Source: Cylindrospermopsis curvispora GIHE-G1 (GTDB lineage: Bacteria > Cyanobacteriota > Cyanobacteriia > Cyanobacteriales > Nostocaceae). From it: a stretch of DNA of 64,000 nucleotides. Below the pieces are notes generated by a model. The model was not told where the DNA came from, made no database searches, and saw only the letters and a program-made list of their open reading frames with translations. A program made the translations under genes and the position numbers. Location of the stretch: positions 3,395,501 through 3,459,500 of the forward strand of contig NZ_CP060822.1 in the NCBI RefSeq assembly GCF_014489415.1, written 5' to 3'. Below, one piece after another: positions 582 to 63,361 of this stretch; position 1 is the first letter of the stretch, and each line of letters begins with the position of its first letter.

Positions 582-3500
582 CTAACTAACTGCGGAACTC
601 ATTTCTTTGTTGGCCTTCTCCCCTTCTGCATTAGCTTCTAAGCTATCTGCTTCCGATGGCGGTACTACTTGCCAGAATTTAGGTAGGTATTCTTCCCATT
701 TATTGAGAATTAATTGCGCTTTTTGAGATTCCGTGCGATCGCAGTGGGCTTTAATTAGGTCATACAACTGTTTTTTGCCTGCTTCGGTTACTAGGGGCTG
801 AATTTTGACTATTGTCTTATTCACTAGATCAGGAAAGCTACCATCTTCGTCTAAGAAGTAGGCCAATCCTCCAGTCATTCCCGCACCAACGTTACGTCCT
901 ACTTTGCCCAAAACTACCACTACCCCACCTGTCATATACTCACAACAGTGGTCTCCCGCTCCTTCAATTACTGCTGTACCTTTGGAATTCCGTACTGCAA
1001 ACCTTTCACCAGCTAAACCACTGGCAAATAAAGCTCCTCCAGTCGCACCATAAAGACAGGTGTTACCAACTATCACGTTTTTATCCGCATCATAGTTAGC
1101 TCCCGCTGGGGGTCTAATAATAATTTCCCCACCGTGCATCCCTTTACCTACATAATCATTAGCTTCCCCCTCCAGGGTTAGGGTTATCCCAGGTAAAATA
1201 AACGCTCCAAAACTCTGTCCCACACTACCTTGGAAATTTAAGTTTATCTGCCCTTCAAAACCAGAATCACCGTATTTAGATGCGATCGCACCTGCTAATC
1301 TTGAGCCTACGGTTCTATCGGTGTTTACGACTTTGTAGGTTTTGGTGACTGTAGCTTGATTTCTGATGGTTGTTTGAATATCCTCATCAGCCAAAATTCT
1401 GTTGTCTAGAACTTCTCCATTACTGTGAACTTCTTCGTGGGTTAACCAGGTACGATTGGATTTAGTATCTGGTAACTTAATTAAACAATCTAGATTCACA
1501 GATTGGGTTTTGGTTAACTGGACATGGGAACGTTTAGTTAATAGGTCTGCTCTACCAGTCAATTCGTTTAGGGAACGATATCCCAGTTTGGCCAGCAAGC
1601 TGCGCACCTCTTCCGCTATAAAATAGAAGAAATTTACCACATGTTCGGGAATACCCGTAAACCTTTGACGTAGTTCTTCTTTTTGGGTGGCTACACCCTT
1701 GGGACAGGTGTTTAAATGACACACCCGGGCCATAATACAACCCTCGGCAATCATTGCTATAGACCCAAAACCAAATTCTTCTGCACCCATTAAAGCAGCA
1801 ACTACAACATCCCAACCACTTTTGATGCCACCATCAACCCTTAAAACTACGCGATCGCGCAGCCCATTATCCATCAGTACCCGATGCACTTCAGTTAATC
1901 CCAATTCCCACGGACTACCGGCGTGTTTAATAGAACTCAAGGGAGAAGCTCCAGTACCCCCATCATGACCAGAAATTTGAATAATATCAGCATTAGCTTT
2001 AGCCACACCTGCTGCAATTGTTCCAATACCAATTTCCGCCACTAATTTTACAGAAACCTGTGCTTTGGGATTAATTTGATGCAGGTCGAAAATCAACTGT
2101 GCTAAATCCTCAATGGAATAAATATCATGATGGGGGGGTGGAGAAATCAAGGTTACACCCGGTTTAGAACGTCGCAACATAGCAATGTAAGGACTGACTT
2201 TGGGACCGGGTAGCTGTCCACCTTCACCAGGTTTTGCACCCTGGGCAATTTTGATTTCTAACTGTTTAGCACTGGCTAAATATCCCGGTGTTACACCAAA
2301 ACGACCAGAAGCTATCTGTTTAATGGCACTGGAAGCCGTGTCACCATTCCTCAAGCCATTTAAATGAGGCAAGGTTGGTGAATGCCCATTTTCATCCACA
2401 TCCCTTAACACCCCATAACGCACTGGATCTTCCCCACCTTCCCCAGAATTCGACTTACCACCAATACGATTCATGGCAATGGCTAGATTTTCATGGGCTT
2501 CCCGTGATAATGCTCCTAAAGACATCCCACCAGTACAGAAACGTTTAGCAATATCACTGACACTTTCCACCTCTTCTAAATCTATCTTTGAGCGATCGCT
2601 ATTAAAGTCCAATAAATCTCTCAAAGCGGTAGTTGGTCTGGTTTGTAAGTGCTGTTTATAAAGCTCATAATGGTTATACTGTTTACCATCCACAGCTTTA
2701 TGTAAAGCTTTCACCAATTCTGGATTGTTACTATGATATTCTCCACCGGGGCGAAACTGAACAAATCCTAGGTTCTCCAACTTCTTCGTTGATAACTCGG
2801 GGAAGGCCTTACTGTGGAAAGAAAGCACCTCCTGAGCTAATTCCCCACAACTGATACCACCAATACGCGATGTAGTGCCTTTGAAACCTAACTTAATTAG
2901 ATCCTCACCAATACCAATAGCTTCAAAAATTTGTGCTGCTTGATAACTAGAAAGCAGGGAAATTCCCATTTTAGAAAGGATCTTCAACAAACCGGACTCC
3001 ACCGCTTGACGATAATTGGCAACTGCTTGCTCCAGGGAAATATCATTTAACTTACCCCGCTCTCGCAACTGCTGGGTTCTAGGATCAAGCCACCAATCAC
3101 GCACCGTGTCCAAGGCCATATATGGACAAACCGCACCCGCACCGTAGCCCAACAAACAGGCAAAATGATGGGTACTCCAACACTGGGCGGTGTGCACCAC
3201 CAAGGAGGTTTTCATTCTGATTCCCTGGCTAATTAAATAATGATGTACCGCACCCACAGCTAATAATGGTGGAATATAACTTAAATTGGCATTAATTCCT
3301 TTTTGACCATCCGGAGCAATCTTATCACTCAGGATTAGGATCTTTGCTCCTGCTCGCACAGACTCTGCTGCTTGTTTTTGCAAAGACTCCACAGCTACCT
3401 TTAATCCTTCCGGACCTCCATCAATAGCAAATAGGGTAGATATTTCAGCTGTACCAAATCCACACAACTTAATTGCTTCTAACTCCCCATCGGTCAAAAC

Positions 3501-59337: not shown

Positions 59338-59460
59338 TGCTCTTGAATGATTGTGGATTTACTACATTTGGAGGTTTGGCTTTGCCACCTATTATATTCT
59401 ATGATTTTGGGTCTTTCAACATTTGATAGAATAAAAATAAATCGAGCAAAGGTAACTTTT

Positions 59461-60324
59461 ATGGCAACCCTACTCAGTGAAAGTAAATCACAGACGGGAC
59501 TAGTTATCTCATGGGAAGCGTTACCCGATGATTTTCAACTAGAGGATGAACCAGTGGACAATACAGCACAACCACTTTTAGCAGGTGCTTTGTGTGAAAG
59601 TTTAGAAATCAGTGGTTTTATTGAACCACAGATGTTAATAGCTTTTAATTTTGCTTTATGTGCCACATTAAATGCTCAATTTATCGCCAAAGCACCAGAT
59701 TGGCTATATATACCTTCAGTTAAAGAAATATTGCCAGGACGCAAAAGCTATACACCCCATTTAGAAGGGGATATACCAGCTGTGGTTATGGAATTTTTGT
59801 CAGATAAAGAGGGCGGAGAATACTCATTTAAACGTACCTATCCGCCGGGAAAATGGTTTTTTTATGAACAGATATTACAAGTTCCTATTTATATAATTTT
59901 TGATCCAGATGGAGGGTTAATAGAATATTATCAACTGGAAAATGAACGTTACGAACTAAAGCAACCAGACGAAAATGGTCGTCATTGGATTAAGTCAATG
60001 GGACTATTTTTAGGAACTTGGCAAGGTACAAAAGAAGGCCGTACTGGCTATTGGTTGCGATGGTGGGATAAAACAGGTAATTTGTTACCTTGGTCCTTAG
60101 AACTGATTGAACAGGAACGTCAACGAGCAGAGCAGGAACGTCAACGAGCAGAACAGGAACGTCAACGAGCAGAACAGGAACGTCAACGAGCAGAGCAGGA
60201 ACATCAACGAGCAGAACAGGAACATCAACGAGCAGAACAGGAACGTCAGGAAAAAGAAAGGTTAATAGCTTATTTGCGATCGCAAGGAGTTGATCCTAAT
60301 AATTTACCTAATCATGCTGGGTAA
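59461..60324 (+). CDS. Uma2 family nuclease-like protein, copy 1
   Basis: 287 residues, starting MATLLSESKSQTGL at 59461; an in-frame start at 59347 lies outside the repeated unit and is rejected. The PD-(D/E)XK-type Uma2 fold shows Asp in APDWLYIP, Glu in VVMEFLSDKE and Lys in PPGKWFFYEQ, then IIFDPDGGLIEYY. After residue about 222 come six QE[R/H]QRAE heptads forming a coiled coil, then a C-terminal LIAYLRSQGVDPNNLP tail. This copy has TAQPLL and AFNFAL where the others read TGQPLL and AVNFAL. Biological role of Uma2 proteins in cyanobacteria is unknown. Confidence 0.9.
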   Translation: MATLLSESKSQTGLVISWEALPDDFQLEDEPVDNTAQPLLAGALCESLEISGFIEPQMLIAFNFALCATLNAQFIAKAPDWLYIPSVKEILPGRKSYTPHLEGDIPAVVMEFLSDKEGGEYSFKRTYPPGKWFFYEQILQVPIYIIFDPDGGLIEYYQLENERYELKQPDENGRHWIKSMGLFLGTWQGTKEGRTGYWLRWWDKTGNLLPWSLELIEQERQRAEQERQRAEQERQRAEQERQRAEQEHQRAEQEHQRAEQERQEKERLIAYLRSQGVDPNNLPNHAG

Positions 60325-60383
60325 ATTAGCTCTTATTCAGCATATCTCTCATCCCTTGACGATCAACCTAACCCACCAGATTA

Positions 60384-60400
60384 GCGTACTGCTACGCAGT
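60384..60400. repeat. Nested palindrome in the spacer between copies 1 and 2
   Basis: GCGTA-CTGC-TACGC and ACTGC-TAC-GCAGT overlap, so two alternative hairpins compete. The same element recurs at 61382-61398 between copies 2 and 3 and is absent between copies 3 and 4. Confidence 0.6.
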
Positions 60401-60479
60401 GACTTCGGTATTGCACTTAAACCTACAGCTTCAATAAATAGATGATAGAATAGAAATAAATCGAGCAAAGGTAACTTTT

Positions 60480-61322
60480 ATGGCAACCCTACTCAGTGAA
60501 AGTAAATCACAGACGGGACTAGTTATCTCATGGGAAGCGTTACCCGATGATTTTCAACTAGAGGATGAACCAGTGGACAATACAGGACAACCACTTTTAG
60601 CAGGTGCTTTGTGTGAAAGTTTAGAAATCAGTGGTTTTATTGAACCACAGATGTTAATAGCTGTTAATTTTGCTTTATGTGCCACATTAAATGCTCAATT
60701 TATCGCCAAAGCACCAGATTGGCTATATATACCTTCAGTTAAAGAAATATTGCCAGGACGCAAAAGCTATACACCCCATTTAGAAGGGGATATACCAGCT
60801 GTGGTTATGGAATTTTTGTCAGATAAAGAGGGCGGAGAATACTCATTTAAACGTACCTATCCGCCGGGAAAATGGTTTTTTTATGAACAGATATTACAAG
60901 TTCCTATTTATATAATTTTTGATCCAGATGGAGGATTAATAGAATATTATCAACTGGAAAATGAACGTTACGAACTAAAGCAACCAGACGAAAATGGTCG
61001 TCATTGGATTAAGTCAATGGGACTATTTTTAGGAACTTGGCAAGGTACAAAAGAAGGCCGTACTGGCTATTGGTTGCGATGGTGGGATAAAACAGGTAAT
61101 TTGTTACCTTGGTCCTTAGAACTGATTGAACAGGAACGTCAACGAGCAGAACAGGAACGTCAACGAGCAGAACAGGAACATCAACGAGCAGAACAGGAAC
61201 GTCAACGAGCAGAGCAGGAACGTCAACGAGCAGAACAGGAACGTCAGGAAAAAGAAAGGTTAATAGCTTATTTGCGATCGCAAGGAGTTGATCCTAATAA
61301 TTTACCTAATCATGCTGGGTAA
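60480..61322 (+). CDS. Uma2 family nuclease-like protein, copy 2
   Basis: 280 residues, identical to copy 3 and nearly to copy 4 in the nuclease domain, with five QE[R/H]QRAE heptads. All three candidate catalytic residues (Asp in APDWLY, Glu in VVMEFLS, Lys in PPGKWFF) are kept. The upstream 37 bases are the same as in the other copies, so each gene probably has its own promoter and ribosome site region. Confidence 0.9.
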   Translation: MATLLSESKSQTGLVISWEALPDDFQLEDEPVDNTGQPLLAGALCESLEISGFIEPQMLIAVNFALCATLNAQFIAKAPDWLYIPSVKEILPGRKSYTPHLEGDIPAVVMEFLSDKEGGEYSFKRTYPPGKWFFYEQILQVPIYIIFDPDGGLIEYYQLENERYELKQPDENGRHWIKSMGLFLGTWQGTKEGRTGYWLRWWDKTGNLLPWSLELIEQERQRAEQERQRAEQEHQRAEQERQRAEQERQRAEQERQEKERLIAYLRSQGVDPNNLPNHAG

Positions 61323-61477
61323 ATTAGCTCTTATTCAGCATATCTCTCATCCCTTGACGATCAACCTAACCCACCAGATTAGCGTACTGCTACGCAGTGA
61401 CTTCGGTATTGCACTTAAACCTACAGCTTCAATAAATAGATGATAGAATAGAAATAAATCGAGCAAAGGTAACTTTT

Positions 61478-62362
61478 ATGGCAACCCTACTCAGTGAAAG
61501 TAAATCACAGACGGGACTAGTTATCTCATGGGAAGCGTTACCCGATGATTTTCAACTAGAGGATGAACCAGTGGACAATACAGGACAACCACTTTTAGCA
61601 GGTGCTTTGTGTGAAAGTTTAGAAATCAGTGGTTTTATTGAACCACAGATGTTAATAGCTGTTAATTTTGCTTTATGTGCCACATTAAATGCTCAATTTA
61701 TCGCCAAAGCACCAGATTGGCTATATATACCTTCAGTTAAAGAAATATTGCCAGGACGCAAAAGCTATACACCCCATTTAGAAGGGGATATACCAGCTGT
61801 GGTTATGGAATTTTTGTCAGATAAAGAGGGCGGAGAATATTCATTTAAACGTACCTATCCGCCGGGAAAATGGTTTTTTTATGAACAGATATTACAAGTT
61901 CCTATTTATATAATCTTTGATCCAGATGGAGGATTAATAGAATATTATCAACTGGAAAATGAACGTTACGAACTAAAGCAACCAGACGAAAATGGTCGTC
62001 ATTGGATTAAGTCAATGGGACTATTTTTAGGAACTTGGCAAGGTACAAAAGAAGGCCGTACTGGCTATTGGTTGCGATGGTGGGATAAAACAGGTAATTT
62101 GTTACCTTGGTCCTTAGAACTGATTGAACAGGAACGTCAACGAGCAGAACAGGAACGTCAACGAGCAGAACAGGAACATCAACGAGCAGAGCAGGAACGT
62201 CAACGAGCAGAACAAGAACATCAACGAGCAGAACAGGAACGTCAACGAGCAGAACAAGAACATCAACGAGCAGAACAGGAACATCAGGAAAAAGAAAGGT
62301 TAATAGCTTATTTGCGATCGCAGGGAGTTGATCCTAATAATTTACCTAATCATGCTGGGTAA
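61478..62362 (+). CDS. Uma2 family nuclease-like protein, copy 3
   Basis: 294 residues, the longest copy, with seven QE[R/H]QRAE heptads before a terminal QEHQEKE unit. The nuclease domain matches copy 2. Every copy is exactly 245 residues plus seven times its heptad count, so length differences come only from the heptads. Confidence 0.9.
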   Translation: MATLLSESKSQTGLVISWEALPDDFQLEDEPVDNTGQPLLAGALCESLEISGFIEPQMLIAVNFALCATLNAQFIAKAPDWLYIPSVKEILPGRKSYTPHLEGDIPAVVMEFLSDKEGGEYSFKRTYPPGKWFFYEQILQVPIYIIFDPDGGLIEYYQLENERYELKQPDENGRHWIKSMGLFLGTWQGTKEGRTGYWLRWWDKTGNLLPWSLELIEQERQRAEQERQRAEQEHQRAEQERQRAEQEHQRAEQERQRAEQEHQRAEQEHQEKERLIAYLRSQGVDPNNLPNHAG

Positions 62363-62455
62363 ATTAGCTATGTAAATGTAGGTTAGGTTTCATACTTCAA
62401 CTGACCCACTTAAATAGATGATAGAATAGAAATAAATCGAGCAAAGGTAACTTTT

Positions 62456-63277
62456 ATGGCAACCCTACTCAGTGAAAGTAAATCACAGACGGGACTGGTT
62501 ATCTCATGGGAAGCGTTACCCGATGATTTTCAACTAGAGGATGAACCAGTGGACAATACAGGACAACCACTTTTAGCAGGTGCTTTATGTGAAAGTTTAG
62601 AAATCAGTGGTTTTATTGAACCACAGATGTTAATAGCTGTTAATTTTGCTTTATGTGCCACATTAAATGCTCAATTTATTGCCAAAGCACCAGATTGGCT
62701 ATATATACCTTCAGTTAAAGAAATATTGCCAGGACGCAAAAGCTATACACCCCATTTAGAAGGGGATATACCAGCTGTGGTTATGGAATTTTTGTCAGAT
62801 AAAGAGGGCGGAGAATACTCATTTAAACGTACCTATCCGCCGGGAAAATGGTTTTTTTATGAACAGATATTACAAGTTCCTATTTATATAATTTTTGATC
62901 CAGATGGAGGATTAATAGAATATTATCAACTGGAAAATGAACGTTACGAACTAAAGCAACCAGACGAAAATGGTCGTCATTGGATTAAGTCAATGGGACT
63001 ATTTTTAGGAACTTGGCAAGGTACAAAAGAAGGCCGTACTGGCTATTGGTTGCGATGGTGGGATAAAACAGGTAATTTGTTACCTTGGTCCTTAGAACTG
63101 ATTGAACAGGAACGTCAACGAGCAGAGCAGGAACGTCAACGAGCAGAACAGGAACGTCAACGAGCAGAGCAGGAACATCAACGAGCAGAGCAGGAACGTC
63201 AGGAAAAAGAAAGGTTAATAGCTTATTTGCGATCGCAAGGAATTGATCCTCATAATTTACCTAATCATGCTGGGTAA
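62456..63277 (+). CDS. Uma2 family nuclease-like protein, copy 4
   Basis: 273 residues, the shortest copy, with four QE[R/H]QRAE heptads. The C-terminal tail reads GIDPHNLP where the others read GVDPNNLP. The candidate catalytic residues are kept. A terminator lies 85 bases downstream and closes the array. Confidence 0.9.
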   Translation: MATLLSESKSQTGLVISWEALPDDFQLEDEPVDNTGQPLLAGALCESLEISGFIEPQMLIAVNFALCATLNAQFIAKAPDWLYIPSVKEILPGRKSYTPHLEGDIPAVVMEFLSDKEGGEYSFKRTYPPGKWFFYEQILQVPIYIIFDPDGGLIEYYQLENERYELKQPDENGRHWIKSMGLFLGTWQGTKEGRTGYWLRWWDKTGNLLPWSLELIEQERQRAEQERQRAEQERQRAEQEHQRAEQERQEKERLIAYLRSQGIDPHNLPNHAG

Positions 63278-63361
63278 ATTAGCTATGTAAATGTAGCTCC
63301 TGTAGCATTGACTGCTCCCGCAATCAACGGTTAATAATTTAATAACCAATACTGGTAAATG

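What the first reader, a model, noticed from the sequence alone, without database searches (positions are those of the whole stretch)
59424..63297. Recent tandem quadruplication of a Uma2 nuclease gene with variable coiled-coil length
Four near-identical units differ mostly in the number of 21-base heptad repeats: 6, 5, 7 and 4. Each protein is exactly 245 residues plus 7 per heptad. The nuclease core is held constant while the coiled coil varies, as in proteins whose oligomer length or partner choice is tuned by repeat slippage. The near-identity implies very recent amplification or gene conversion.
Basis: partly seen in the sequence, partly recalled or inferred. Interest (0 to 1): 0.65.

Follow-up and report, generated by a model that had tools for sequence, protein, structure and literature searches.

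The report
Uma2 nuclease gene array, variable helices
A cyanobacterium carries four almost identical neighbouring copies of a putative DNA-cutting enzyme gene that differ mainly in how many 7-residue segments extend a helical rod at the protein's end, and this is one of eight such gene clusters in its genome, which makes it a natural series for asking whether rod length decides which copies work together.

Summary
Cores differ by 2-6 of 648 nt. The array is not isolated. The 4.06-Mb genome has 70 Uma2 genes; 61 are of the heptad-tail type and 54 of those sit in eight clusters from four subfamilies. Across this genome and its sister, 72 of 73 tails keep the same phase modulo 7. The sister genome has one copy with no full heptad beside the same ATPase gene. 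A tail/3'-flank mosaic in the window, and concerted evolution in a second array, support recent amplification by recombination. Cores are under purifying selection (dN/dS 0.13-0.16) and keep the D/E/K residues. 'Coiled coil' is unproven: EQERQRA has only Ala as hydrophobic residue and looks like a salt-bridged helical rod. The closest parallel is Rpn, another PD-(D/E)XK toxin family, with tandem arrays and a variable-repeat helix that tunes partner matching. I favour length-matched self-association (inferred); neutral slippage in recombining arrays is nearly as likely. Large arrays look unusual: three single-contig relatives have mostly dispersed tailed Uma2 genes. New variant of a known kind.

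The parts
59461..60324 (+). Uma2 copy 1, 287 aa, 6 heptads
60480..61322 (+). Uma2 copy 2, 280 aa, 5 heptads
61478..62362 (+). Uma2 copy 3, 294 aa, 7 heptads
62456..63277 (+). Uma2 copy 4, 273 aa, 4 heptads
60109..60234 (+). heptad tract of copy 1 (6 x 21 bp, EQERQRA/EQEHQRA)
61128..61232 (+). heptad tract of copy 2 (5 x 21 bp)
62126..62272 (+). heptad tract of copy 3 (7 x 21 bp)
63104..63187 (+). heptad tract of copy 4 (4 x 21 bp)
59422..59460 (+). 39-nt leader before copy 1, with AAGG ribosome-binding-like motif; matched 100% before all four sister-genome copies; copies 2-4 carry a near-identical leader
60325..60479 (+). 155-bp spacer 1-2, identical to spacer 2-3
61323..61477 (+). 155-bp spacer 2-3
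62363..62455 (+). 93-bp spacer 3-4; its first 19 bp equal the 3' flank of copy 4
63293..63334 (+). 42-nt end of a psbA gene (VAPVALTAPAING stop) at the 3' edge of the array; same join as in the sister genome
63517..64000 (+). start of a 514-aa AAA-type ATPase gene, neighbour of the single-copy locus in the sister genome (98.3% over 1711 bp); runs past the window

Best explanation
A recently amplified tandem array of a Uma2-family PD-(D/E)XK nuclease gene. Each protein is a conserved nuclease core, a polar alpha-helical rod built of n heptads (about 10.5 A each, two helical turns, so the helix face stays nearly in register), and a conserved amphipathic cap (KERLIAYLRSQG[VI]DP.NLP). Unequal recombination and slippage between 21-bp units and between gene copies keep cores alike and change rod length in whole heptads. 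Most likely function, inferred from Rpn: the cap and rod mediate self-association that sets or restrains nuclease activity, and rod length decides which partners match, so an array encodes several partly separate versions of one toxin-like or defence nuclease. Shown here: anatomy, phase constancy, purifying selection, retained catalytic residues, expansion relative to the sister locus, signs of exchange between copies. Inferred: nuclease activity, self-association, length matching, defence role.
For: Anatomy. 72 of 73 tails in two genomes share one length phase mod 7 within each subfamily. Core dN/dS 0.13-0.16 against the other copies of the subfamily. D80, E111 and K131 kept in every intact copy of four subfamilies. 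Rod predicted as one continuous helix 212-260, block pLDDT mostly 83-95, with no repulsive and many favourable i+3/i+4 charge pairs. Sister genome: one copy with zero full heptads beside the same ATPase gene and with the same psbA-end 3' flank. Mosaic: tails group copies 1+4 and 2+3, 3' flanks group 1+2 and 3+4. In the D array, shared with the sister (6 versus 5 copies), end copies are orthologous (4 nt of 705) yet tails are 83 versus 97 aa, and sister internal copies cluster together. That array lies beside type I restriction genes hsdM/hsdS. Rpn: tandem duplication arrays, variable-repeat dimerisation helix, only a repeat-matched RpnS blocks RpnL (PMC10327210). Uma2 was proposed as a solo toxin forming paralogue cassettes (PMC2701414).
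Against: No function has been measured. The unit is 7 residues, not 4, and the core is Uma2, not Rpn. An internal antitoxin start is not clearly conserved. Tail lengths within arrays are not over-dispersed: subfamily A has 9.9% equal pairs within arrays against 3.1% between arrays, so recent duplication rather than selection for difference dominates there. Single-copy A orthologues have identical tails in both genomes, so variation tracks the array state. No phage record carries the family, and most arrays are not next to obvious defence genes.
Confidence: 0.4

Rival explanations
1. Neutral spacer: the rod tolerates any whole number of heptads, and its length drifts by slippage and unequal crossing-over because array copies recombine often; the frame and 7-residue step follow from the 21-bp unit alone.
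For: Single-copy orthologues keep identical tails while array copies vary; equal lengths are more frequent within arrays than between; homologues in other genomes range from none to several heptads with conserved cores.
Against: Subfamilies A, C and D, with different unit sequences, all keep the phase, with one exception in 73; the R/H site is the only amino-acid variation in the 22 full units of the window array, suggesting constraint on the rod itself.
Confidence: 0.35
2. Gene dosage: amplification is selected for more of one protein, and tail length is incidental.
For: Near-identical cores; other array expansions in the same genome.
Against: Each unit's rod differs; four diverged subfamilies expanded in the same genome, not one.
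Confidence: 0.1
3. Selfish spread: the nuclease cuts or nicks DNA near its own gene and so promotes its own duplication by recombination repair.
For: Copies of subfamily B sit at several sites with a shared left edge and different upstream DNA in both genomes; recombination-like joins, including a psbA end; the Rpn authors raise the same idea.
Against: No target-site duplication or terminal inverted repeat was identified by eye (not searched systematically); psbA and ATPase repeats could supply the recombination sites without it.
Confidence: 0.1
4. Assembly artefact: one gene repeated by misassembly.
For: Reads were not available, so this is not formally excluded.
Against: Private SNPs, different spacers and tails; genome in 2 contigs; the sister assembly also has a 5-copy Uma2 array.
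Confidence: 0.03

Closest known systems
Uma2 family (PF05685, COG4636, formerly DUF820)
   Same: HMM match above cut-off; D/E/K residues; expanded in cyanobacteria; paralogue cassettes described in 2009 (PMC2701414)
   Different: Long variable heptad tail; arrays of near-identical copies; eight clusters in one genome
Rpn (COG5464) intragenic toxin-antitoxin nucleases (PMC10327210)
   Same: PD-(D/E)XK superfamily; C-terminal helix with a repeat number that varies between copies; arrays made by tandem duplication; copy number varies between relatives
   Different: Different nuclease family; 7- not 4-residue unit; internal antitoxin start not established; phage defence untested
EcoR124I/II specificity TAEL repeats (as cited in PMC10327210)
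   Same: Short repeat whose number changes function in a restriction system
   Different: Four-residue repeat in a type I restriction enzyme's DNA recognition; here a C-terminal tail on a putative nuclease
Uma2 and rpn expansions in Thermosynechococcus (PMC9403480)
   Same: Lineage-specific Uma2 copy-number expansion
   Different: 15-17 copies; tandem heptad variation not described in the passages read

Membership tests
Uma2 (PF05685) | Profile match over curated cut-off | tested here: met
   32.2-33.9 bits vs 27
Uma2 (PF05685) | PD...E-x-L...K catalytic residues | tested here: met
   D80, E111, K131 in all intact copies of four subfamilies
Uma2 (PF05685) | Nuclease activity | not testable with these tools
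   needs protein assay; core model too poor for a fold match
Rpn (COG5464) | Rpn-type nuclease domain | tested here: not met
   Pfam scan gives only Uma2 for the core
Rpn (COG5464) | C-terminal helix with variable repeat number | tested here: met
Rpn (COG5464) | Four-residue repeat unit | tested here: not met
   unit is 7 residues
Rpn (COG5464) | Intragenic antitoxin start | tested here: inconclusive
   M180 in most but not all homologues; synonymous conservation dip at codons 201-216 between the 1% and 5% permutation levels
Rpn (COG5464) | Phage defence | not testable with these tools
   no PADLOC family matches the core; needs a plaque assay
Type II toxin-antitoxin pair | Small antitoxin gene next to each toxin gene | tested here: not met
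   spacers of 93-155 bp; no ORF of 60 aa or more listed between copies
Classical coiled coil | Hydrophobic residues at two heptad positions (a, d) | tested here: not met
   only Ala at one position in subfamily B; A, C and D have more Leu/Ile

The most novel reading that the evidence does not exclude
Uma2 arrays are a length-coded nuclease family: each copy's heptad number gives it a private self-association or autoinhibition partner, so recombination in the array generates new, mutually insulated toxin or defence specificities without touching the catalytic core.
Probability: 0.2. Interest if true: 0.78.

Novelty: new variant of a known kind. Interest (0 to 1): 0.52.

Why it matters
Uma2 is one of the most expanded cyanobacterial gene families and still has no established role. 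These arrays give a ready-made series in which the core is held constant and only rod length changes, so the idea that repeat number sets partner choice in PD-(D/E)XK toxins can be tested outside Rpn. If it holds, a shared principle would link two nuclease families. The genome also offers eight clusters in which concerted evolution and slippage can be followed.

Tried and rejected
Structure: AlphaFold2 on 45 close homologues gave a confident tail but a core largely below pLDDT 50; the PDB fold search was therefore meaningless, and PDB sequence searches with the window protein found no credible relative. Internal translation start: checked by codon-level conservation, inconclusive. Phage or plasmid origin: no phage or viral hit, 11 distant plasmid hits. 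Promoter and terminator scans: promoter matches no more than shuffles; terminator-like matches lie on the minus strand within the genes. Over-dispersion of tail lengths in arrays: not seen. NCBIfam gave no match for the window protein. No paper in the library holds both 'Uma2' and 'coiled coil'.

Full report
Observation. Four ORFs on the + strand at 59461-60324, 60480-61322, 61478-62362 and 62456-63277 encode 287, 280, 294 and 273 aa. Subtracting 7 residues for each of 6, 5, 7 and 4 heptads leaves 245 in every case. The 21-bp arrays are found independently by TRF. Cores of 648 nt differ by 2-6 nt, with two amino-acid changes, both in copy 1; the last 75 coding nt differ by 0-3. Copy 1 has a longer possible ORF from 59347, but the leader with a ribosome-binding-like AAGG precedes the ATG at 59461, as in the other copies.

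Identity. PF05685 (Uma2) matches at 32.2-33.9 bits against a cut-off of 27. Aligned with three other subfamilies of the same genome (here called A, C and D; the window array is B), the residues D80, E111 and K131 are kept in all intact copies. Uma2/DUF820 has been placed in the PD-(D/E)XK superfamily with structure 1wdj (PMC1913061). The core is under purifying selection: dN/dS is 0.13-0.16 against other copies of the subfamily and 0.09-0.21 against three more distant homologues (L063, L064, L065).

Genome context. The window lies in a 4.06-Mb, two-contig genome, a Nostocales cyanobacterium judging from its relatives. It has 70 Uma2 genes above cut-off. By my count are of the heptad-tail type and 54 of these lie in eight clusters: A at about 340, 389, 1422 and 2970 kb (6, 7, 14 and 6 copies), C at 514-529 kb (6, interleaved with ATPase/PDDEXK_9 genes; one is a diverged relative with a short tail), D at 3350 and 3648 kb (6 and 5), and B in the window (4). 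Tails change in steps of 7: within each subfamily 72 of 73 tails from this genome and its sister share one phase, the exception having one extra Lys.

Sister genome. The only same-genus genome held has 26 Uma2 genes. Its copy at 2677122 has no full heptad. It is followed by the same psbA-end flank as window copy 4, then by the same 514-aa ATPase gene (98.3% over 1711 bp), and is preceded by the leader type of window copy 1. The left flank of the window (clpS-like and CPBP-protease-like genes, named from their sequence) lies elsewhere in the sister, so the array's left edge is also a rearrangement breakpoint. The window cores differ from all sister B copies by 20-27 nt, but from one another by 2-6.

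Exchange between copies. Writing distinct units as letters, the tails read ABAACDE, AADABE, AADBFAFG and ABACH. The opening units group copies 1+4 and 2+3, while the 3' flanks group 1+2 and 3+4. All four combinations are present, as expected if copies have recombined; slippage could also create such homoplasy. In the D array, present in both genomes (6 versus 5 copies), the end copies are orthologous (4 nt of 705 apart) but have tails of 83 and 97 aa, while three internal sister copies cluster together. Single-copy A orthologues differ by 2 of 639 nt and have identical tails. Tail change therefore tracks array membership.

The tail. AlphaFold2 predicts one helix over residues 212-260, then a turn at the GxDP motif. 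EQERQRA has Ala as its only hydrophobic residue, no repulsive and many favourable i+3/i+4 pairs; this is closer to a single charged helix than to a classical coiled coil. The A, C and D tails have more Leu or Ile and could be true coiled coils. Self-association is therefore an inference for B. A heptad adds two turns (700 degrees, about 10.5 A), so length changes while the helix face turns by only about 20 degrees; this is helix geometry, not a measurement.

Distribution. Among 113 related ORFs in 109 loci only three close same-strand pairs were seen, two of them with near-identical cores and different tail lengths. Many of those loci come from draft assemblies, which can collapse arrays. In three single-contig relatives, 25-34 matches per genome are mostly dispersed, with only a few adjacent pairs. 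Large arrays thus look unusual, though the sample is small.

Interpretation. Rpn proteins share the superfamily, tandem-duplication arrays and a variable-repeat C-terminal helix, and matching repeat number is needed for the short form to block the long form (PMC10327210). Uma2 was proposed in 2009 as a solo toxin forming paralogue cassettes (PMC2701414). The D array lies directly beside hsdM and hsdS, with hsdR also seen in the sister. I therefore favour a toxin-like or defence nuclease whose rod length controls partner matching. Against this, lengths within arrays are not over-dispersed, an internal start is not established, and nothing has been assayed. Neutral change in a recombining array is nearly as likely.

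Verdict. Real, recent and part of a genome-wide pattern; a new variant of a known kind.

Noticed in passing
63293-63334 and L033:2858-3940: The 3' edge of the array is a 42-nt psbA end (VAPVALTAPAING stop) followed by terminator-like sequence nearly identical to that after the full psbA gene downstream; the ATPase gene lies between the two, so psbA repeats may have driven rearrangement here.
   Followed up: partly
G000:C1:3350601-3357374 (L026) and G001:C1:1709547-1715079 (L147): A Uma2 array (6 versus 5 copies) lies directly beside type I restriction genes hsdM/hsdS in both genomes, with different tail lengths.
   Followed up: partly
G000:C1:1422064-1438995 (L024): A 14-copy Uma2 array with tails of 38-122 residues; one copy (1432039-1432965) breaks the heptad phase by one extra Lys.
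   Followed up: partly
L023:2761-18215: Uma2 genes interleaved with near-duplicate AAA-ATPase_like/PDDEXK_9 genes, suggesting a repeated two-gene unit.
   Followed up: no
60379-60413 and 61377-61411: The two identical 155-bp spacers contain a palindromic, repeat-like sequence (GCGTACTGCTACGCAGTGAC) of the kind seen as dispersed repeats in cyanobacteria (from memory, not searched).
   Followed up: no
59385-59422: Synteny with the sister genome breaks just upstream of the array; the clpS-like and CPBP-like genes lie elsewhere in the sister genome (95% identity).
   Followed up: partly
G000:C1:3356064-3356393 (L026): A truncated 109-aa Uma2 fragment inside the D array that keeps an in-phase heptad tail.
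   Followed up: no
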